Below are positions 39,392 through 47,758 of a stretch of 52,519 nt of DNA, in pieces. The stretch covers positions 1-52,519 of IMG/VR virus record IMGVR_UViG_3300029268_000023; one strand, given 5' to 3'. This DNA comes from a virus. Position numbers and translations under genes: made by a program. Position 1 is the first letter of the stretch; each line of letters begins with the position of its first letter. The notes under the pieces were generated by a model. It saw only the letters and a program-made list of their open reading frames with translations, was not told where the DNA came from and did not search any database.

Positions 39392-40219
39392 TTAAGGTTT
39401 TGAAAATCTTTCGATTATCCAATTTTTATACTGTATACTATAACTCTTTTTATTGCTAAATGTAACTCTTATCATTTTGTAATTCAACTCTGGTTTGTCT
39501 AAGCAAAACTTTTTAATATCTGTTACATTATTGTATTCTATACTATTATTTATAAACCTATAAATAAATTTTGAATTATTGTTATTTGTACCAGATCCAG
39601 CAATTAATCTTTTATTTTTGTATTCATCACCTTGCTGTCTTGCTTTAGACATTTCACTTAATTTTCTTCTAATCTCATCTGGGTTAGAGTGTTTACATAT
39701 TTCATCAAGAGTTTTGCCTTTATGATCTGACACTTTACCTTTACGGGAAGAATTATCTCTTAATTTTTGTTTATGGTCTTCTGTTAATTTTCTACCAGTT
39801 AACGTATCACTTATTTTCTTTTTGATTTCTTCTGATGTTTTATGACCTATCATTCTTATTGATCGCTCATGGCGTTCTTTTTCAGATATCACTCTTTTGA
39901 ACCCACATACTCCTTCACCACCATCCGTCATATTCAATAAATTTCCAGTTTTATTAACTCTTTTACCATACTTCTTTATTAAACATTTTTCTAATATAAA
40001 TGCATCTTCTTCTGTTAGATGTTTTACCACAAATATTGTTTGAGGGTTCTCTTTATATTGATCAATATACTTTTTAACCCAGTTTAAAAAATATGTTCTT
40101 TTCTTTGATGAAAAAGCACTTGATAGATGATCTAAATATCTTCTTCCTTTTCCCTTTCCAACATACACAACTTTATCATTTATATCAAGATATGCATAAA
40201 CATAGAATTTTCTTTCCAT
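39392..40219 (-). CDS. GIY-YIG homing endonuclease
   Basis: The 275-residue protein opens FYVYAYLDINDKVVYVGKGKGRRYLDH, a GIY-YIG variant, followed by AFILEKCLIKKYGK with the metal-binding-type Glu. The centre holds NUMOD3-like repeats (IGHKTSEEIKKKISDTLTGRKLTEDHKQKL, RKGKVSDHKGKT), and the C-terminus a helix-turn-helix-like YRFINNSIEYNNVTDIKKFC. GGAGG precedes the ATG. It separates genes 18 and 19, which are adjacent in T4. A structured element lies between it and gene 18. Confidence 0.87.
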   Translation of the reverse strand: MERKFYVYAYLDINDKVVYVGKGKGRRYLDHLSSAFSSKKRTYFLNWVKKYIDQYKENPQTIFVVKHLTEEDAFILEKCLIKKYGKRVNKTGNLLNMTDGGEGVCGFKRVISEKERHERSIRMIGHKTSEEIKKKISDTLTGRKLTEDHKQKLRDNSSRKGKVSDHKGKTLDEICKHSNPDEIRRKLSEMSKARQQGDEYKNKRLIAGSGTNNNNSKFIYRFINNSIEYNNVTDIKKFCLDKPELNYKMIRVTFSNKKSYSIQYKNWIIERFSKP

Positions 40220-40314: not shown

Positions 40315-42060
40315 TTAAGCTACAGTTGTAGTGACTCCTGTACGAGTAACTATTGTGTTAAGCTGTATGAATTCACTGACCCTCACCGGTTGGCAGTAAA
40401 CGTTAATAACCATCTGATTACTATCTATAATCTGAGATGTGTTATTTGTTGAGTCGACAACAACTTCGTATGCAGTTAATCCACCCTCAGACTGTACAGT
40501 TGCAAGAAAACTATCTATGTTTGACCAAACACGAAGACGGTTTCTTTCAGTGTTTGTTATGTCAAGAACATATGGTTGTAAAGCAGCTTCAATAGATGTT
40601 TCAATGAAAAGCAGCAATCTGCGTACATTGATTCTATCAAGTGCTGACTTCTTTAGCTGAGCTGTTTTCTGACCCCAAATTACATGTCCAACACCACGTA
40701 CGAAACGTGAAGTGTTGATGTTTACATCATACAACTGCCCAATTTGAGCAAAAGAGAATATAACATTCTGATCAAGAGCTGGTCCAATAACACCTCTTGC
40801 ATAACCAGCAGGAGCGTCCCATACGTTAGCTACATTATCTGTTCTTGCCATTGCAGCAGCACCATATATACATTTTGGAACATATATCTTACGATCATTG
40901 TATTGGTCATAAATGTAATCCCAACCAGCATATAAAGCAACATATGATGGATTAACATATCCATAAATTTCAGCTGCTTTTACTTGATCTACTGTCAATG
41001 CTGTTCTTGCACCAGTCTGACAGACAGCAACACAATCTTTTCTAAACTCAGCTACTTCAGCAGCCTTTTTCTTAACTGCAGTATCATATGTAGGAACAAT
41101 CAAGATATCTACATCTAAATCTTCCTTACTTTTCATAAGATCATAACCAGCTGTTGATGTTAAACCAGTATTCTCATTTGCTGCTGCACCACCTTGCAAT
41201 TTCTCAAAATTAAACTTACGGTTAATACCATTAATATCAACTGATGGTACAAGAGCAAGGTTAAAAATACTCATAGCTGATGGAACTTTCACATATATGT
41301 ATTGTGAGTTTCCGTTTACAACTTCTTCTATTTGTAACGAGTTGCCATCTTGATCTGTTTGCTGATTAACAGTACCATAGAAAGTCTCTACAGGAGTGTA
41401 TCCAGATAGAGCTGTTTGCTCACTTGTAGTCCATACTTCTTTTGATGTCTTTGTATAAACATTCAATTTGAATACTCTCTCCGCATTATCCATGTCATCT
41501 ACAGCTGAAGAATAATCATCAAAACTATATCTCCAATCGCAAGCAGATGAATACCACTCAATACCAACAGCAACATTATGAGCATCAGTACCAGGACCTG
41601 TAGCACCAATTAATAAAACATCTGATGCAGCAAAAGAGAAATCTTCCAAAGCAGCAATAGAATTAGTTTTATCAAGAGATGTAGGAGCAATGTTAGCAGA
41701 AATGCTACTTGAATATGTTCCTGTTCCGCTTGTAGTGTAAACAGCATTAGCATATCTATCTAATGTATCAGCTATTCTCATAACATTCAATGAGTTTGAA
41801 TACTTTAAGAATTCAAGTGCAGCATATGATGCAAATCCATACTCAGGAGTTTTTCTGTCTGTTGCAGCACCTGATGTGAATATAGGTTGTCCAAATGTAT
41901 CAATGAAACTTTTATCATCTGCTATTTCAACAAATCTGTTAACTGGACCATTCTTAGAGCGTACAATTATAGCGCCCACAGAGGTTCCAGCTGGTGTTGT
42001 AATCTCAGACTGATCTACTTCCTTTAGGTACACACCAGGAGTTGAATATTTTTGTGGCAT
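40315..42060 (-). CDS. 18: Tail sheath protein gp18
   Basis: The 581-residue protein starts STPGVYLKEVDQSEITTPAGTSVGAIIVRSKNGPVN, the conserved sheath opening (PGVYxxExD), has YVALYAGWDYIYDQYNDRKIYVPKCIYGAAAMARTD, and ends with NVRRLLLFIETSIEAALQPYVLDI and the DSNQMVINVYCQPVRVSEFIQLNTIV strand of sheath subunits. T4 gp18 is 659 residues; the loss is in the outer domain. It forms the contractile sheath around the gp19 tube. GGAGG precedes the ATG, and a CATAAATA promoter lies 50 bases upstream. Confidence 0.95.
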   Translation of the reverse strand: MPQKYSTPGVYLKEVDQSEITTPAGTSVGAIIVRSKNGPVNRFVEIADDKSFIDTFGQPIFTSGAATDRKTPEYGFASYAALEFLKYSNSLNVMRIADTLDRYANAVYTTSGTGTYSSSISANIAPTSLDKTNSIAALEDFSFAASDVLLIGATGPGTDAHNVAVGIEWYSSACDWRYSFDDYSSAVDDMDNAERVFKLNVYTKTSKEVWTTSEQTALSGYTPVETFYGTVNQQTDQDGNSLQIEEVVNGNSQYIYVKVPSAMSIFNLALVPSVDINGINRKFNFEKLQGGAAANENTGLTSTAGYDLMKSKEDLDVDILIVPTYDTAVKKKAAEVAEFRKDCVAVCQTGARTALTVDQVKAAEIYGYVNPSYVALYAGWDYIYDQYNDRKIYVPKCIYGAAAMARTDNVANVWDAPAGYARGVIGPALDQNVIFSFAQIGQLYDVNINTSRFVRGVGHVIWGQKTAQLKKSALDRINVRRLLLFIETSIEAALQPYVLDITNTERNRLRVWSNIDSFLATVQSEGGLTAYEVVVDSTNNTSQIIDSNQMVINVYCQPVRVSEFIQLNTIVTRTGVTTTVA

Positions 42061-42110
42061 TACTTACCTCCAATTTTAATAAATAATTATTTACAGTTCT
42101 TCTCTTAAAC

Positions 42111-42118
42111 TATTTATG
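42111..42118 (-). promoter_or_regulatory. Late-type promoter variant CATAAATA
   Basis: CATAAATA on the minus strand in the 77-base gap between the terminase C-terminal gene and gene 18. Its flanks (CTAAAACATAAATAG) match those of the site at 2000-2007. Sheath protein is needed in large amounts late, so a promoter is expected here. Confidence 0.55.
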
Positions 42119-42137
42119 TTTTAGAGGTGGGCAATTA

Positions 42138-43808
42138 CTAAAAGTAGAAATCTTCTTCGGTAGCTGGCATGCCATTATCGATGATAGTTATGCCTACACT
42201 ATTGTCTTCCTCTTCTTCTTGTTCTGGTCGACTTAGTGAAAATTCTCTATTGATCTTTTTAGCTGCAAGACGTTTGCCATCAAAATATGGTGTTGATATA
42301 AAATAAACAGCCCATAGTAAAGATGTTACTAAGTCATCATGATCTTCTGGACTACTGGCATTATATACTCCAGGTGTTTTTTCTTCATAAACACTTAATT
42401 GGTAAACTGTACGTCTATGATTAAGTTTCAGCATGCGATTTTCAACATACTTTTTAAGAAGCATGCATCCTTCAATTTTATTTTTTCGAGTTGCACGAAT
42501 ACCAATTCCTTTTTTATCACAATTAACAATATTTTCGCTTTCATGATCATACCATATACAATTAGCAACAACAGTTCCAACATTATTATTTTCAAGCATC
42601 AACATACCATCGTTATAATACTCTGACATTGTTATGCACACCTTAGCAAAACTAAAGGGATCTATGAGATTACTGTGATAAACAGCAACCTGTTCTAAAT
42701 CAATTTCATTTCTAATTCTGATTACATTTACAACACTTTCATCATTTCCTGTACCCTCAGCTGAGTCAACACCTAATATATAAAACGCTCCAGGTACTGG
42801 TTCAGCAAATATTTCTAACAATCCTTCATACTTAGTTATAACAGGTTCAATTGGATCTAATGCCTCTAACACTTCACTATCAATTAATGTATTACTTGAT
42901 CCAATAAACTTACAATCAAACTCCTGATTAAAAGCAATCTGTCCAACGTCCTCTACTACTCGTTTTTTGAAATTAGGATCCTGTTTATATGTTGGAACAT
43001 CTTGCCAGCGTATCTTTACAGGATAAAAGCTATTCTTGTCTTTTTTCGCATTATCCCACATTGTATAGAAGTGATTTAATCCCTGAGGAGTTGATATTAT
43101 AACAACCTTAGATGATTGTCCTGATATAATAGTTGGGTATACAGATCTCATGAACTCATCAGCAACATTGTTTGGGACGAATGCAAACTCATCTAAATAT
43201 AATATGTTGTATGTTTGTCCACGAACTGCAGATGATCCTGTTGCAGCTGCAATAATACGTGTTCCATTTGAAAGCTGAATTGTTTTTGCATTCCAACCAC
43301 CATCTTTAATACCAACCTGCATCCAATGAGGTAAGTTTTCATATACCATTTTTACACGTCTTAAAATATCAAGAGCAGTTGATTCTTTGTTAGCAAGAAT
43401 AGCGATGTTTTGATCTTTATTAAATATAGCATGAAATATTAGATATATAGCACTTATTGTTGTATTATGAGATAATATACTATTTGTGTAATAAGTGTGA
43501 TTAGTTGAATTAACCGACAAATCATACATGTTTTCAAATCGATCAGTCTCCTCAACCATATTGACCGATAATAGGCCAACTTTTGTTCTAATTAACTGTC
43601 CTACTTGCAAATCCTTTATAAAAACTTCGTTATAAAACTCATCAATTAAAATGTGGTTATCTGCACCCTCTAATTCAAAAGGTCCTACTTGTATTTTCCA
43701 TACTTTATATTCAATTGTTTTATTAGAATGAGATATGTCTTCCCAACCAGTATCAGTTTCAACTTCCCATTCATCAACTTCAAATGTTTCTATAAATTTT
43801 TTATCCAT
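42138..43808 (-). CDS. 17: Split intein C-part fused to large terminase gp17 C-part
   Basis: A 556-residue protein. Residues 1-115 are a C-terminal intein fragment carrying the block B His (LEGADNHILID, His52), IKDLQVGQLI, and the terminal YDLSVNSTNHTYYTNSILSHN, ending in the splice Asn115. Residue Thr116 begins the extein (TTISAIYLIF), the rest of the Walker A motif. Then follow Walker B YLDEFAF, LGVDSAEGTGND and HDDLVTS of the nuclease. Splicing to the upstream half would give a 526-residue gp17 (T4: 610). The ATG overlaps the endonuclease gene by eight bases and has a weak ribosome site, so it is probably translated by coupling. Confidence 0.9.
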   Translation of the reverse strand: MDKKFIETFEVDEWEVETDTGWEDISHSNKTIEYKVWKIQVGPFELEGADNHILIDEFYNEVFIKDLQVGQLIRTKVGLLSVNMVEETDRFENMYDLSVNSTNHTYYTNSILSHNTTISAIYLIFHAIFNKDQNIAILANKESTALDILRRVKMVYENLPHWMQVGIKDGGWNAKTIQLSNGTRIIAAATGSSAVRGQTYNILYLDEFAFVPNNVADEFMRSVYPTIISGQSSKVVIISTPQGLNHFYTMWDNAKKDKNSFYPVKIRWQDVPTYKQDPNFKKRVVEDVGQIAFNQEFDCKFIGSSNTLIDSEVLEALDPIEPVITKYEGLLEIFAEPVPGAFYILGVDSAEGTGNDESVVNVIRIRNEIDLEQVAVYHSNLIDPFSFAKVCITMSEYYNDGMLMLENNNVGTVVANCIWYDHESENIVNCDKKGIGIRATRKNKIEGCMLLKKYVENRMLKLNHRRTVYQLSVYEEKTPGVYNASSPEDHDDLVTSLLWAVYFISTPYFDGKRLAAKKINREFSLSRPEQEEEEDNSVGITIIDNGMPATEEDFYF

Positions 43809-44808
43809 ATAAAAATTCTCTACACTTATCTATAACTTGTTGTTTGTTTTCTTTCCATTCACTTTCCCAAATAACCAATACAATATAACCTAACCGCCCG
43901 GCATAATTTATTTTTTTACTGTCGGATTCCCATATATCATGTGCGTATTTATGCTTTCTTTTGTGGTAATGATATTTGTCATATTTATTAGGGTTACAAT
44001 GCCAGTAATCTCCATTATACTCTATAATTTTCTTTTCATTGTATAGATCATACGCATAATTAAGAGGACAATCATCTCGTTTAAGTATTAATTGACTATA
44101 ACACTGCAGCTTTTCTTTTAATTCTCTTTCAGCGATTGAAACACTTATACCATTATATCTGCTGGCAAAAGAAATCTTCTTTTTATTAATTTCTTGTTTC
44201 TCTTCAAATGATTTAGAATTAAGTTTGTCTTGCCACTTCTGTTGACGCTCAGCAAACTTTTTAACACCTAACTCTTCACCATACTTAGCAATGCATTTTT
44301 CTTTGCTAAATGTTTGTTGACGCTTATGTACTTTTTGTTTAGCTTCTTCTTCAGTAAATCCTTTATCAAGCCAATACTTTACATGCATGGGAGAAAGTTT
44401 CTTGCCAGTATTATATAACTCTTTATTTACTTCTCCACCAACCTTTGCACGTTTCTCATATTTATTGTGCCAAAGAACATTACATTTAGTGTTGTGGCAA
44501 AACGATTTATACCCATTTTGTAGATTGTTGAATTCTAATTCTTTTCCACACCATTTACAAGATTTCTCTTTTTTACCAACAGTGTCTAATAAATATTTAA
44601 TATAATATTGTTCATGTGTGATTGTATCAGAGTGTGATCGAGTTAAATGAGAACTCAAACGATTATAACTTTCAAATTGTTCTCCACATATTTGACAAAC
44701 ATATTCGCATTTATATTGATCAACATGATCTTTTAGTTTATGTTTTCTTAACTGACCAGCATAAAAACCTTTTCCACAAAATTCACAAATTCTTTTTTCA
44801 ATTGTCAT
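43801..44808 (-). CDS. Zinc-finger Vsr-like homing endonuclease between terminase halves
   Basis: The start is taken at ATG 44808, with AAGGAG seven bases ahead, giving 335 residues; an earlier ATG at 44832 lacks a site. The N-terminus has two C2H2-like fingers (CEFCGKGF...H...H and CQICGEQF...H...H) and a CKWCGKEL...CHNTKC ribbon. The C-terminus has KIIEYNGDYWHCNP and DSKKINYAGRLGYIVLVIWESEW, the EDxHD/Vsr-fold nuclease of the family known from split-intein 'fractured' genes. It likely cuts intein-less terminase genes and so spreads the whole arrangement. A TATAAATA promoter lies just upstream. Confidence 0.85.
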   Translation of the reverse strand: MTIEKRICEFCGKGFYAGQLRKHKLKDHVDQYKCEYVCQICGEQFESYNRLSSHLTRSHSDTITHEQYYIKYLLDTVGKKEKSCKWCGKELEFNNLQNGYKSFCHNTKCNVLWHNKYEKRAKVGGEVNKELYNTGKKLSPMHVKYWLDKGFTEEEAKQKVHKRQQTFSKEKCIAKYGEELGVKKFAERQQKWQDKLNSKSFEEKQEINKKKISFASRYNGISVSIAERELKEKLQCYSQLILKRDDCPLNYAYDLYNEKKIIEYNGDYWHCNPNKYDKYHYHKRKHKYAHDIWESDSKKINYAGRLGYIVLVIWESEWKENKQQVIDKCREFLYG

Positions 44809-44835
44809 TAAATACTCCTTTTTATTGTTCATGAG

Positions 44836-44843
44836 TATTTATA
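44836..44843 (-). promoter_or_regulatory. T4-type late promoter TATAAATA
   Basis: TATAAATA on the minus strand. The stop codon TAA of the terminase N-part is inside the octamer (ATA TAA ATA). It lies 28 bases before the endonuclease ATG and can drive both the endonuclease and the terminase C-part. Confidence 0.68.
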
Positions 44844-45216
44844 TTTTAACTGGTTTTTCCTTACTGTCTTTTTGTAAAGAATGAAATTCTTCCAATGTAA
44901 TTTCTTTAACATCACCTGTTTTCTTATTTCTTATTTTTATCATTGTATCTTTAGTACAACATTTACCACACTGACGAGGAGCAAGAACTACTAAATTTCT
45001 TTTATTTTTAGGGGGTTTTAAGTAAGCTTTAAGCATTCTTTTTTGGAACTCCCAAAGCTTAATAAGCTGTTTTCCATGGTCAATTGTTACAATATGACAG
45101 TAGTGTTCAGCAAAATATATAATGTCTGCCATACATCTGATAAGCTCAGATTGCATCTGTTTGGTATACTCAACCTTTTCATGATCACCACGTAAATTAG
45201 GATTACCACTATACAT
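44839..45216 (-). CDS. 17: Large terminase gp17 N-part fused to split intein N-part
   Basis: The 125-residue protein contains gp17 residues 1-85 (FAEHYCHIVTIDHGKQLIKLWEFQKRML, then LVVLAPRQCGK), and stops being terminase-like in the middle of the Walker A motif. Residues 86-125 begin with Cys86 and read CCTKDTMIKIRNKKTGDVKE, an intein block A with Asp at position 5. The intein part is only 40 residues, so the split lies between blocks A and B, as in the atypically split AceL-TerL intein. Joined to the downstream half the Walker A reads APRQCGKTT. The start overlaps the stop of gene 16 by one base. Confidence 0.9.
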   Translation of the reverse strand: MYSGNPNLRGDHEKVEYTKQMQSELIRCMADIIYFAEHYCHIVTIDHGKQLIKLWEFQKRMLKAYLKPPKNKRNLVVLAPRQCGKCCTKDTMIKIRNKKTGDVKEITLEEFHSLQKDSKEKPVKI

Positions 45217-45728
45217 TATTCATCATCCTCATCTTTCACTTCATATTCAACATCAATTGAGTTAATTTCTGACTCTTTACGAGCTTTTATAAGCTGTTCC
45301 AACATATCAGCACCAGTCATTGTGATATTAACTGTTGTTTGTTGTGTCTGAGGTGTTAGTTTAAACATTTCAAGGTCAGCTATAACTTTATTTAATTCTC
45401 TTAATTCTCTTAACTGATCTGTTACAGAATTTGATAACTTGGAGTATGCTTCAAACATACTGGCACGTGTGCCTTGTTTAAGAGATTCTTTTAATATCTC
45501 CATAACTTCACGTGTGTCACTTATCAACATGTGAAGTTCGCCCATTAAATATGTTTGGTCTTTTAGTACAATCTCTGTGGGTTGTTGTGCTACTTGTATA
45601 AGGTCGTTTTTCCGCTCACTAATTTTTGCAAGTTTATTTTCAATATTTTGTACTGTAGCTGAAGTATCAGTAACAAAGGAAGCACCAAACTTCTCACTAA
45701 TCTTTTCAAATTGTTCAACATGTTCCAT
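45216..45728 (-). CDS. 16: Small terminase gp16
   Basis: A 170-residue, largely helical protein. DQTYLMGELHMLISDTREVMEILKESLKQGTRASMFEAYSKLSNSVTDQLRELRELNK corresponds to the central helices of T4 gp16 (164 residues), and a C-terminal VNITMTGADMLEQLIKARKE to its end. Gp16 forms rings that bind concatemeric DNA and regulate gp17. It lies directly before gene 17, as in T4. Confidence 0.82.
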   Translation of the reverse strand: MEHVEQFEKISEKFGASFVTDTSATVQNIENKLAKISERKNDLIQVAQQPTEIVLKDQTYLMGELHMLISDTREVMEILKESLKQGTRASMFEAYSKLSNSVTDQLRELRELNKVIADLEMFKLTPQTQQTTVNITMTGADMLEQLIKARKESEINSIDVEYEVKDEDDE

Positions 45729-45744
45729 AAACTCCTCTCTTTCA

Positions 45745-45752
45745 TATTTATA
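45745..45752 (-). promoter_or_regulatory. T4-type late promoter TATAAATA
   Basis: TATAAATA on the minus strand, overlapping the stop of gene 15 (TTA TAA ATA) and 17 bases before the gene 16 start, where GAGGAG provides the ribosome site. Confidence 0.62.
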
Positions 45753-46557
45753 ACATATATCCTGCTGAGGTTACACCATTAGTCCAATAAACTTCAGTAT
45801 TAGCATCATATCCACTTGTGCTCCAACCACTTACAGGAATGGCGCTTGTAGAATTAAATCCACTTGTATCATAACCAATAGTAAAGATATTATTTTGTCC
45901 AATGAAATATTGAGATTTAATAACCTTAACAATTTTAGCAGCTGTAACAGGTTTATACATCCAACCTTCAACAACAAGTTCTATTGTTCCATTAATCTCT
46001 CGAGTTTGTGTCTCATCTAAATCATCTGTAAATTCTGTTGACACTCCAGCCATTGTAACAGGTAAGTCTCTTTCAATGTTAAGAAAAGAAAACTCTTTTA
46101 CTCTTAACATATTTTTCGGAGCAAAGTAAGGAAGAATCAGTTCCATAAGTTGAGAGAAATCTTCCATGTATTCTGTCTTAATGTTTAATGTAAAATGATA
46201 GTCCCAAGGAGTTGGTTGAAAATCTTCAAATAATGTGTTATCTCCAACTCCAGCAATATTTACATATTCACCAAGCCAGTTTCTTGTTTCCTCAATAGAT
46301 CGTGCTCTATCTGCAGCAAATGTTAATCCATTCATAACAAGTGCTATTCTTGGAAGTTTAACAAAGTATTTATGTCCACTTTCCTGCTCTTTTCGAAACT
46401 GGTATGCTTTTTCCATTGGACCAAAAGAAATGGGAACCTCAATAGATTTAACAACATTACCACTTGTGTCATATCGATAAATGGTAAAATCATTAAACAT
46501 ATCCAGTAAAGCTACTGTAATGTTCCAAGTTGTTTTTGGGTAATAATATGGAAGCAT
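45748..46557 (-). CDS. 15: Tail sheath stabiliser gp15
   Basis: The 269-residue protein aligns with T4 gp15 (272): TVALLDMFNDFTIYRYD, VPISFGPMEKAYQF, LPRIALVMNGLTF, QPTPWDYHFTLNIKTEYMEDFSQLMELILPYFAP and the late INGTIELVVEGWMYKPV. Gp15 forms the hexameric cap that ends the tail tube and sheath and joins the neck. The last 40 residues (GYDTSGFNSTSAIPVSGWSTSGYDAN) are a Ser/Gly/Tyr-rich extension not seen in T4. Confidence 0.88.
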   Translation of the reverse strand: MLPYYYPKTTWNITVALLDMFNDFTIYRYDTSGNVVKSIEVPISFGPMEKAYQFRKEQESGHKYFVKLPRIALVMNGLTFAADRARSIEETRNWLGEYVNIAGVGDNTLFEDFQPTPWDYHFTLNIKTEYMEDFSQLMELILPYFAPKNMLRVKEFSFLNIERDLPVTMAGVSTEFTDDLDETQTREINGTIELVVEGWMYKPVTAAKIVKVIKSQYFIGQNNIFTIGYDTSGFNSTSAIPVSGWSTSGYDANTEVYWTNGVTSAGYML

Positions 46558-46568
46558 GTTAATACCTT

Positions 46569-46751
46569 TTAAACAGCAGAGGCACTAAGTGCAATAGTTG
46601 CTGTAGATGCTGTTTTTGGATTAAAATTAACAATTGTTGTTTGTAGTATATTAGCTGAGTCAATATAACTAACTAATATAGTATTGTTTCCTGTTGGTGT
46701 AATATCAACTATCGTGACACTTTCACCATTCATAATAGCTGTAACATTCAT
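46569..46751 (-). CDS. Small hypothetical protein
   Basis: A 60-residue, probably beta-rich protein (AIMNGESVTIVDITPTGNNTILVSYID...TTIVNFNPKTASTATIALS). AAGGA precedes the ATG by seven bases and the start overlaps the stop of the endonuclease gene by four bases. The position between neck and tail completion genes suggests a virion protein. No family recognised. Confidence 0.6.
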   Translation of the reverse strand: MNVTAIMNGESVTIVDITPTGNNTILVSYIDSANILQTTIVNFNPKTASTATIALSASAV

Positions 46752-47758
46752 TTTTTATCCTTTGTAAGGAGTTTGAGGTAGTTGTCTATGATATTATCAA
46801 TTTGATCAATATTTATATAGGGTATTCTAAGAATATTTATATTATTGTTTAAACAGTACTGGTTTTTCATGATATCTTTTCTTTGTATATCTTTAAACTG
46901 ATTCAGTAATTCTTCGTTAGATAACCTACCACGTGAATAATCTACAGGTCTAAAATGTTGCTCTCCATCAAACTCTATACATAAATTATGATCAGGTAGA
47001 TAAAAGTCAAATTTTAATGATGATTTATCTTTTAAACCAATAAATCTTTTTTGTTCTTTAAATTTAATTCTATTATTCATGAGGTAAATATTAATTATCT
47101 CTTCACCTTTTGATCTATTACATTTAGGACAACCATTACCATTTAAATGGTCTCCTGCTTTTTGTGTATATTCACCATGATTAGGACAAATTATTGTTAC
47201 ATTTTTATAGTATCCATCATAATTAGTTTTAGAATAGTTATATTTATCATTGTGAATTATATTAACTTTTTCTATAAAAATTTTTGTATTGTATTTATGG
47301 ACTTTTTTAATAACCTTAATCTTTTTTGGCTTTCTTTGTTTATCACCTCTTAGGATGCTTGCGCATTTAAAGCAACCAAAACCTCTTTGATGAGTTGTTG
47401 GCAGTTGTTCAAATATTCCATGAGTAGGACATATTATCTTTACTTTTTCTGAGGCATTTTTCCAATCAACTAAAGAATAGTCATATTTATCACCATGATG
47501 TTTTTTGGATCTTTTTAAGAATTCTTCTAATGTACCAGTTAAACTGTTTTTAGTTCTTTCATAACCACATTTAGGACAACCTCTTTGATGGATTGTGTGG
47601 TCTTTAGGTGATATTTCGAAAGTGTGATTATGTTTAATGCAAATAATTTTAACTTTGGATCGAAAGTTTACATATTCAACCAAAGAATAGTCATATTTGT
47701 CACTATGTATTTTAACAGCTTTTTCAATAAAATCTTCTTTTGTTTGCTTTATAGCCAT
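46748..47758 (-). CDS. Probable homing endonuclease, three DUF723-type repeats plus Vsr-like nuclease
   Basis: The 336-residue protein has three repeats, opening FIEKAVKIHSDKYDYSLVEY, FLKRSKKHHGDKYDYSLVDW and FIEKVNIIHNDKYNYSKTNY, each ending in a CxKC, and a C-terminal KFDFYLPDHNLCIEFDGEQHF nuclease followed by NINILRIPYI. It is a paralogue of the proteins at 1140 and 10112. AAAAGGAG precedes the ATG. It splits the neck gene 13 from the tail completion genes and may have displaced gene 14, which I do not see. Confidence 0.82.
   Translation of the reverse strand: MAIKQTKEDFIEKAVKIHSDKYDYSLVEYVNFRSKVKIICIKHNHTFEISPKDHTIHQRGCPKCGYERTKNSLTGTLEEFLKRSKKHHGDKYDYSLVDWKNASEKVKIICPTHGIFEQLPTTHQRGFGCFKCASILRGDKQRKPKKIKVIKKVHKYNTKIFIEKVNIIHNDKYNYSKTNYDGYYKNVTIICPNHGEYTQKAGDHLNGNGCPKCNRSKGEEIINIYLMNNRIKFKEQKRFIGLKDKSSLKFDFYLPDHNLCIEFDGEQHFRPVDYSRGRLSNEELLNQFKDIQRKDIMKNQYCLNNNINILRIPYINIDQIDNIIDNYLKLLTKDKK

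What the first reader, a model, noticed from the sequence alone, without database searches (positions are those of the whole stretch)
42138..45216. Large terminase gene fractured by an atypically split intein with a homing endonuclease gene between the halves
Seen: the gp17 N-part stops being terminase-like after APRQCGK (residue 85) and goes on with a Cys-initiated intein block A (40 residues). The second gene starts with 115 residues ending in SILSHN and resumes with TTISAIY. Joining them restores GKTT of Walker A. Between them is an endonuclease gene with EYNGDYWH and zinc fingers, with its own late promoter and ribosome site. Known: fractured genes with split inteins and Vsr-like endonucleases were described from metagenomes (Dassa and colleagues, 2009), and the AceL-TerL intein is an atypically split terminase intein. 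Inference: this is a new member, with N/C intein lengths of 40/115 and the split between blocks A and B, so packaging depends on trans-splicing.
Basis: partly seen in the sequence, partly recalled or inferred. Interest (0 to 1): 0.9.

Follow-up and report, generated by a model that had tools for sequence, protein, structure and literature searches.

The report
Phage packaging-motor gene split by intein
In this T4-like phage the gene for the DNA-packaging motor is cut into two genes that must be rejoined as protein by a split intein, with a self-spreading DNA-cutting gene sitting between them; this is a real new example of an arrangement already known from metagenomes, and we find it to be common.

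Summary
gp17 (large terminase, TerL) is encoded as an N-half (85 extein residues + 40-residue IntN), an endonuclease gene, and a C-half (115-residue IntC + 441 extein residues). Joining the exteins restores a 526-residue TerL with its Walker A motif. All splicing residues are present (Cys1, block-B His, His-Asn at the end, Thr+1). IntC matches solved inteins, and a contiguous relative (59% identical to the window's IntC) models as a HINT intein whose floppy loop is the break point. The endonuclease has N-terminal zinc fingers and an EDxHD/Vsr-like catalytic domain like I-Bth0305I. The interpretation (trans-splicing plus homing) is well supported, but the kind is known: GOS-TerL is 37/115, AceL-TerL 25/104. 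A capped search gave 57 distinct fractured TerL loci, including cultured phages: one without the endonuclease; another has its halves about 79 kb apart. The window differs from AceL/GOS in having Thr+1 at Walker A. The more surprising lead lies in relatives: in at least four lineages the endonuclease is hidden in another reading frame of an unbroken, stop-free TerL-intein gene, suggesting a route by which fractured genes arise.

The parts
44962..45216 (-). N-extein of gp17 (TerL residues 1-85, ending APRQCGK)
   Evidence: phrog_5989 3.9e-20; aligns with the intein-less TerL of L007 and Cr30
44842..44961 (-). IntN, 40 residues, Cys1; stop codon at 44839-44841
   Evidence: 31-32 residue matches to contiguous TerL inteins L100 (48%) and L092/L099 (44%), E 3e-8 to 4e-9 in a small database
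44836..44843 (-). TATAAATA, T4-type late promoter element, overlapping the N-half stop codon
   Evidence: 27 in window against 10.9 expected, 0 of 100 shuffles reach it; also near the N/HEG junction in 8 of the 44 other fractured loci. Function inferred
44815..44820 (-). Shine-Dalgarno AAGGAG, 6 nt before ATG 44808
   Evidence: sequence
43801..44808 (-). Homing endonuclease gene (335 aa from the likely start; 343 aa from ATG 44832): N-terminal zinc fingers, C-terminal EDxHD/Vsr-like nuclease domain
   Evidence: Foldseek: I-Bth0305I catalytic domain 3r3p prob 0.99, target TM 0.67 (E 0.089), and C2H2 zinc-finger proteins prob up to 1.00 (E 0.016 or worse); invariant D254, I262, E263, H270 in 17 relatives
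43464..43808 (-). IntC, 115 residues (block B ADNH, block F, SILSHN); its ATG overlaps the HEG stop by 8 nt
   Evidence: 59% identical over 115 residues to the contiguous intein of L100; VidaL, gp41-1, Cat hits
42138..43463 (-). C-extein of gp17 (441 aa): rest of Walker A, Walker B LDEFAF, RNase H-like nuclease domain
   Evidence: PF03237 and PF17289; T4 Gp17 structures 3ezk, 3cpe matched by the family profile
45216..45728 (-). neighbour: gp16-like small terminase
   Evidence: phrog_445, 0.0024, weak; position
45748..46557 (-). neighbour: gp15 tail sheath stabiliser
   Evidence: PF16724 3.2e-38
40315..42060 (-). neighbour: gp18 tail sheath
   Evidence: phrog_23 1.7e-70

Best explanation
A T4-like phage carries a split intein in gp17 at the Walker A motif (GK|TT). 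The intein is broken after its first alpha-helix (the S2 site), so TerL is made as two polypeptides. IntN and IntC associate, fold into a HINT intein and splice the exteins into one 526-residue terminase; neither half alone has a complete Walker A motif. The gene between the halves is a separate EDxHD/Vsr-like homing endonuclease, probably made late from its own TATAAATA promoter, that cuts intein-less gp17 and so spreads the whole insert by repair in co-infections. Shown here: anatomy, homology of both halves to inteins, all splicing residues, one TerL in the record, precise fit to an intein-less allele, nuclease fold. Inferred: splicing, late expression, cleavage and homing.
For: Gene anatomy and a 526-aa joined TerL that aligns end to end with intein-less TerL (RQCGK|TTISAIY against RQSGK|STISAIY in L007) and keeps Walker B and the nuclease acidic residues. 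IntC and IntN align to the two ends of contiguous inteins in the same TerL site: L100 59% and 48%; Klebsiella phage Magnus, annotated intein, 35% and 28%. The L100 intein models at pLDDT 93.8; best PDB match VidaL, E 4.6e-11; the only soft stretch (about residues 31-40) is where the window is split, after helix 23-31. 57 distinct fractured TerL loci; Cys1 in all those read, Thr or Ser at +1 in nearly all. Cultured phages have it: Delftia phage PhiW-14 (no HEG); Vibrio phage vB_VmeM-32 with halves about 79 kb apart. One terminase match in the record. HEG fold. In relatives, HEG-bearing segments 98% identical lie in inteins whose IntC is only 81% identical, as expected of homing.
Against: No protein data. 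The record is a 52.5 kb fragment, so a second TerL elsewhere is not excluded. The usual block-B Thr is Ala here (ADNH), as at the aligned position of VidaL (CAFNH). Late promoter, endonuclease activity and target are inferred; the HEG Foldseek E-value is weak (0.089).
Confidence: 0.93

Rival explanations
1. The two polypeptides work as a non-covalent two-piece terminase without splicing, as reported for a phage ribonucleotide reductase interrupted by a homing endonuclease gene.
For: Such a case exists (mentioned in PMC10448857).
Against: Both halves end in conserved intein parts with all splicing residues; the break lies inside Walker A between K and T; contiguous spliceable inteins sit at the same site in relatives.
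Confidence: 0.03
2. The insert is an RNA intron or an assembly or sequencing artefact.
For: Terminase genes of other phages do carry introns (ICP1, PMC10448857).
Against: No intron family in Rfam over 41000-46500; the flanking extensions are inteins; the layout recurs in dozens of contigs and in isolates.
Confidence: 0.01
3. Splicing works, but the endonuclease no longer homes: a resident remnant or a gene with another role.
For: 11 of 57 fractured loci lack a detected HEG, so the split intein persists without it; a relative stands alone beside an intein-less TerL in Cr30.
Against: The window gene is intact with family-invariant residues.
Confidence: 0.2
4. The phage lineage is defective and gp17 is broken.
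For: None beyond the split itself.
Against: All three frames are open, catalytic residues are kept, and neighbouring late genes are intact.
Confidence: 0.02

Closest known systems
GOS-TerL and AceL-TerL atypically split inteins (and the Cat consensus)
   Same: TerL host gene, break after helix 1 (S2 site; PMC13014065), short IntN and long IntC (GOS 37/115, AceL 25/104; PMC11766414); Cat structure 6dsl matches
   Different: Those have Cys+1 (GOS Ser1); here Cys1/Thr+1 at the Walker A GK|TT site. From my own recollection AceL sits in EFE|CEF, a second TerL site seen in relatives here
Fractured genes with split inteins and Vsr/EDxHD homing endonucleases (Dassa and colleagues 2009)
   Same: Essential phage gene in two parts, free-standing endonuclease gene of the same nuclease class between them
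   Different: Paper not held here; comparison rests on my own knowledge and later citations
VidaL intein (6vgv)
   Same: Best sequence and fold match; atypical early split; no Thr in block B
   Different: VidaL is split earlier, at S1, with a 16-aa IntN
Contiguous TerL inteins of Ackermannviridae (Klebsiella phage Magnus, Salmonella phage Maynard)
   Same: Same insertion site in gp17 and homologous intein
   Different: One polypeptide, no endonuclease, cis-splicing
ShiLan-type hidden HNH endonucleases in phage methylases (PMC11855218)
   Same: Precedent for the out-of-frame hidden endonuclease found in relatives of this locus
   Different: ShiLan inserts are neither inteins nor introns and carry HNH, not EDxHD, nucleases

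Membership tests
Split intein (trans-splicing) | N- and C-parts on separate ORFs, each fused to a part of one host protein | tested here: met
Split intein (trans-splicing) | Cys/Ser1, block-B His, terminal His-Asn, +1 Cys/Ser/Thr | tested here: met
   Cys1, H52, H114-N115, Thr+1; H52, H114 and N115 invariant in 15 relatives
Split intein (trans-splicing) | HINT fold | tested here: met
   Model of L100, the contiguous intein 59% identical to the window IntC; the joined window pair itself could not be folded under the tool rules
Split intein (trans-splicing) | Spliced product | not testable with these tools
   needs protein experiment
Atypically split (S2) TerL intein of the AceL/GOS type | Break after the first alpha-helix | tested here: met
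   Helix 23-31 and loop 31-40 in the L100 model; window IntN ends at residue 40; S2 definition from PMC13014065
AceL/GOS-TerL allele (same insertion site) | Cys at +1 / same TerL site | tested here: not met
   Thr+1 here, Cys+1 in AceL and GOS; so same kind, not the same allele
Fractured gene (Dassa type) | Independent homing endonuclease gene between the halves | tested here: met
   46 of 83 relatives
EDxHD/Vsr-like homing endonuclease | Catalytic-domain fold of I-Bth0305I and conserved acidic/His residues | tested here: met
   3r3p prob 0.99, target TM 0.67, E 0.089; invariant D254, E263, H270
EDxHD/Vsr-like homing endonuclease | Cleaves the intein-less allele | not testable with these tools
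   needs enzyme assay

The most novel reading that the evidence does not exclude
Fractured TerL genes like this one are one phase of a cycle. The EDxHD endonuclease is first carried out of frame inside a contiguous, stop-free TerL intein (a hidden HEG). Stops arising in the host frame then turn the intein into a split one with a free-standing endonuclease. Later loss of the endonuclease leaves a bare split intein or, by internal deletion, a mini-intein. The hidden state exists in at least four relative lineages and one exact deletion derivative is seen; that the window itself passed through it is not shown, and its reading-frame arrangement differs.
Probability: 0.3. Interest if true: 0.65.

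Novelty: new member of a known kind. Interest (0 to 1): 0.42.

Why it matters
The locus adds a Thr+1, Walker A-site split intein to the short-IntN inteins used for protein labelling. It also indicates that the packaging motor of many uncultured T4-like phages is assembled by trans-splicing. The family around it holds, at one insertion site, empty alleles, mini-inteins, hidden-endonuclease inteins, fractured genes with and without an endonuclease, halves far apart and genes broken twice. That makes the open question of how split inteins arise testable by comparison and in two isolates, PhiW-14 and VmeM-32.

Tried and rejected
Rfam scan for introns at the locus: nothing relevant. A genome-contig scan for the C-int/TerL junction: no confirmed relative. 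Checked whether the window HEG is hidden in an open TerL frame: no; N-half and HEG share a frame broken by one TAA, and the HEG +2 frame has 54 stops. Vibrio phage Va1 as an isolate with a hidden HEG: rejected; there the HEG is fused in frame ahead of an IntC at a different TerL site. Pfam Intein_splicing matches IntC only weakly (0.36, below cut-off); NCBIfam intein_Cterm passes its cut-off (17.8 against 15.6 bits). Dassa 2009 and Bachmann 2015 are not in the library. Proportions of states come from a search that kept the 80 best of at least 514 matches and are not population frequencies.

Full report
What is there. On the minus strand the window reads gp15 (45748-46557), gp16-like small terminase (45216-45728), N-half of gp17 (44839-45216), endonuclease gene (43801-44832), C-half of gp17 (42138-43808), gp18 (40315-42060). 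The N-half is 85 terminase residues ending APRQCGK plus 40 residues CCTKD...PVKI. The C-half is 115 residues ending SILSHN plus 441 terminase residues starting TTISAIY. Removing 40 + 115 residues gives a 526-residue TerL that aligns throughout with intein-less TerL of an IMG/VR phage (L007, RQSGK|STISAIY) and of Caulobacter phage Cr30, with Walker A, Walker B (LDEFAF) and the nuclease motifs intact. The record holds one terminase match, but it is a 52.5 kb fragment.

The intein. IntC alone matches VidaL (1.7e-5) and gp41-1 (0.028); the family profile matches VidaL 3.9e-13, gp41-1 9.3e-10 and Cat 5e-9. Against contiguous inteins at the same TerL site the two halves fall on the two ends: L100 48% over 31 residues for IntN and 59% over 115 for IntC, L111 48% and 44%, Magnus 28% and 35%. 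Cys1, block-B His (ADNH), His-Asn and Thr+1 are present; H52, S113, H114 and N115 are invariant in the 15-row alignment. AlphaFold2 of the L100 intein gives pLDDT 93.8, with one soft loop at about residues 31-40 just after helix 23-31; Foldseek gives VidaL 4.6e-11 and many other inteins. The window's break falls in that loop. Breaks after the first helix (S2) are what AceL and GOS TerL have, per PMC13014065. PMC11766414 lists GOS-TerL 37/115 (Ser1, Cys+1) and AceL-TerL 25/104 (Cys1, Cys+1). So 40/115 is ordinary for the type, while Thr+1 at Walker A shows a different insertion site.

The endonuclease. The likely start is ATG 44808: AAGGAG lies 6 nt before it, while ATG 44832 lies 3 nt after TATAAATA. 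TATAAATA is enriched in the window (27 against 10.9 expected; 21 on the gene strand), which fits T4-type late promoters. The element at 44836-44843 overlaps the N-half stop and lies upstream of both the endonuclease and the C-half, so it could drive both (inference). The model (pLDDT 74; above 90 over most of the C-terminal domain) matches zinc-finger proteins (E 0.016 or worse) and the I-Bth0305I catalytic domain (prob 0.99, target TM 0.67, E 0.089). Invariant residues in 17 relatives include D254, I262, E263 and H270. This is the EDxHD/Vsr-like class.

Relatives. From scans of IMG/VR and named phages, 83 distinct TerL-intein loci were classified: 46 fractured with an endonuclease gene between, 11 fractured without one detected, 10 contiguous without, 4 contiguous with an endonuclease in another frame, 12 cut off. 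IntN is 31-78 residues (median 37), IntC mostly 113-147 (median 123). On a tree the window lies in a 15-row clade (96/91) that mixes fractured loci with and without the endonuclease and one contiguous intein (L100), its most identical row (57%). The states therefore appear to change often. In cultured phages, Delftia phage PhiW-14 has N-half and C-half adjacent with no endonuclease. Vibrio phage vB_VmeM-32 has its N-half (IntN 34 residues) beside gp16 near record position 80 kb and its C-half beside gp18 at 1.1 kb, where trans-splicing would be obligatory.

Hidden endonucleases. In L018; L126/L127; L109, L130, L140, L184-L186; and L187, TerL and intein form one open frame through the whole endonuclease, which is read in the +1 frame. 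Over 279-304 codons that frame has no stop, whereas synonymous recoding of the same endonuclease gives about 15-35 on average and never fewer than 5 in 3000 trials per case; the fractured relatives tested have 39-69 in that frame. Between L109 and L130, 24 of 31 differences fall at third positions of the endonuclease codons while the TerL frame changes freely apart from stops (2 synonymous, 26 not). L111 is L109 with the endonuclease body removed in frame, the end of it still present: a mini-intein by deletion. L130 and L140 share the endonuclease segment at 98% but their IntC at 81%, a recent transfer ending at the endonuclease's 3' side. In fractured loci with an endonuclease the two halves share a frame in 25 of 45 (1/3 expected; p = 0.002, loci not independent). 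A hidden HNH in a phage methylase insert that is neither intein nor intron is published (PMC11855218). I found no report of one inside an intein, from a limited search.

Verdict. The locus is a new member of a known kind; its interest lies mainly in being one of a large set that shows all stages of intein fracture at one site. Splicing, late expression and homing remain inferences.

Noticed in passing
L018 3235-6222; L126 3756-5972; L130 3789-6755; L109 412-3345; L187 3607-6477: EDxHD/Vsr-like endonuclease encoded in the +1 frame inside a single stop-free TerL-intein ORF (hidden HEG); stop-free status far beyond synonymous-codon expectation.
   Followed up: partly
L111 2773-3324 against L109 679-1944: Mini-intein that is an exact in-frame internal deletion of the hidden-HEG intein, with the HEG 3' end still present.
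   Followed up: partly
L130 and L140 4086-5351: HEG segments 98% identical while the adjoining IntC is 81% identical: recent transfer with a sharp boundary.
   Followed up: partly
KU160494.1 (Vibrio phage vB_VmeM-32) 79947-80624 and 1102-3216 (L096, L088): Cultured phage with TerL halves about 79 kb apart, gp16 beside one and gp18 beside the other; a second, contiguous intein sits near Walker B.
   Followed up: partly
L097 1-1382: VmeM-32 UvsX also appears fractured, with a SegG-like gene between a RecA-like part and a Hint C-terminal part.
   Followed up: no
GQ357915.1 (Delftia phage PhiW-14), L095 964-3243: Fractured TerL with split intein and no endonuclease; the N-half is unannotated in the record.
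   Followed up: partly
L101, L119, L134, L139, L159: TerL broken twice: middle piece begins with IntC (Walker A site) and ends with an IntN; the next piece has IntC at the EFE|CEF-type site. Three polypeptides, two split inteins.
   Followed up: partly
L190 (Vibrio phage Va1) 1149-4566: TerL broken at the EFE|CEF-type site with the endonuclease fused in frame ahead of IntC.
   Followed up: partly
L010, L011, L015: The same endonuclease class between very short IntN (about 15-27 residues) and IntC in other genes: apparent replicative helicase and clamp-loader ATPase.
   Followed up: no
L012 3019-6269: Related split intein inserted two residues earlier in TerL (RQ|CGK instead of GK|T).
   Followed up: no
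L090 2842-3864: Cr30 carries a related endonuclease gene just upstream of an intact intein-less TerL.
   Followed up: no
window 46748-47758 and 39392-40219: Two further homing-endonuclease-like genes (DUF723/DUF4379 type, phrog_559; and phrog_314) near the packaging and sheath genes.
   Followed up: partly
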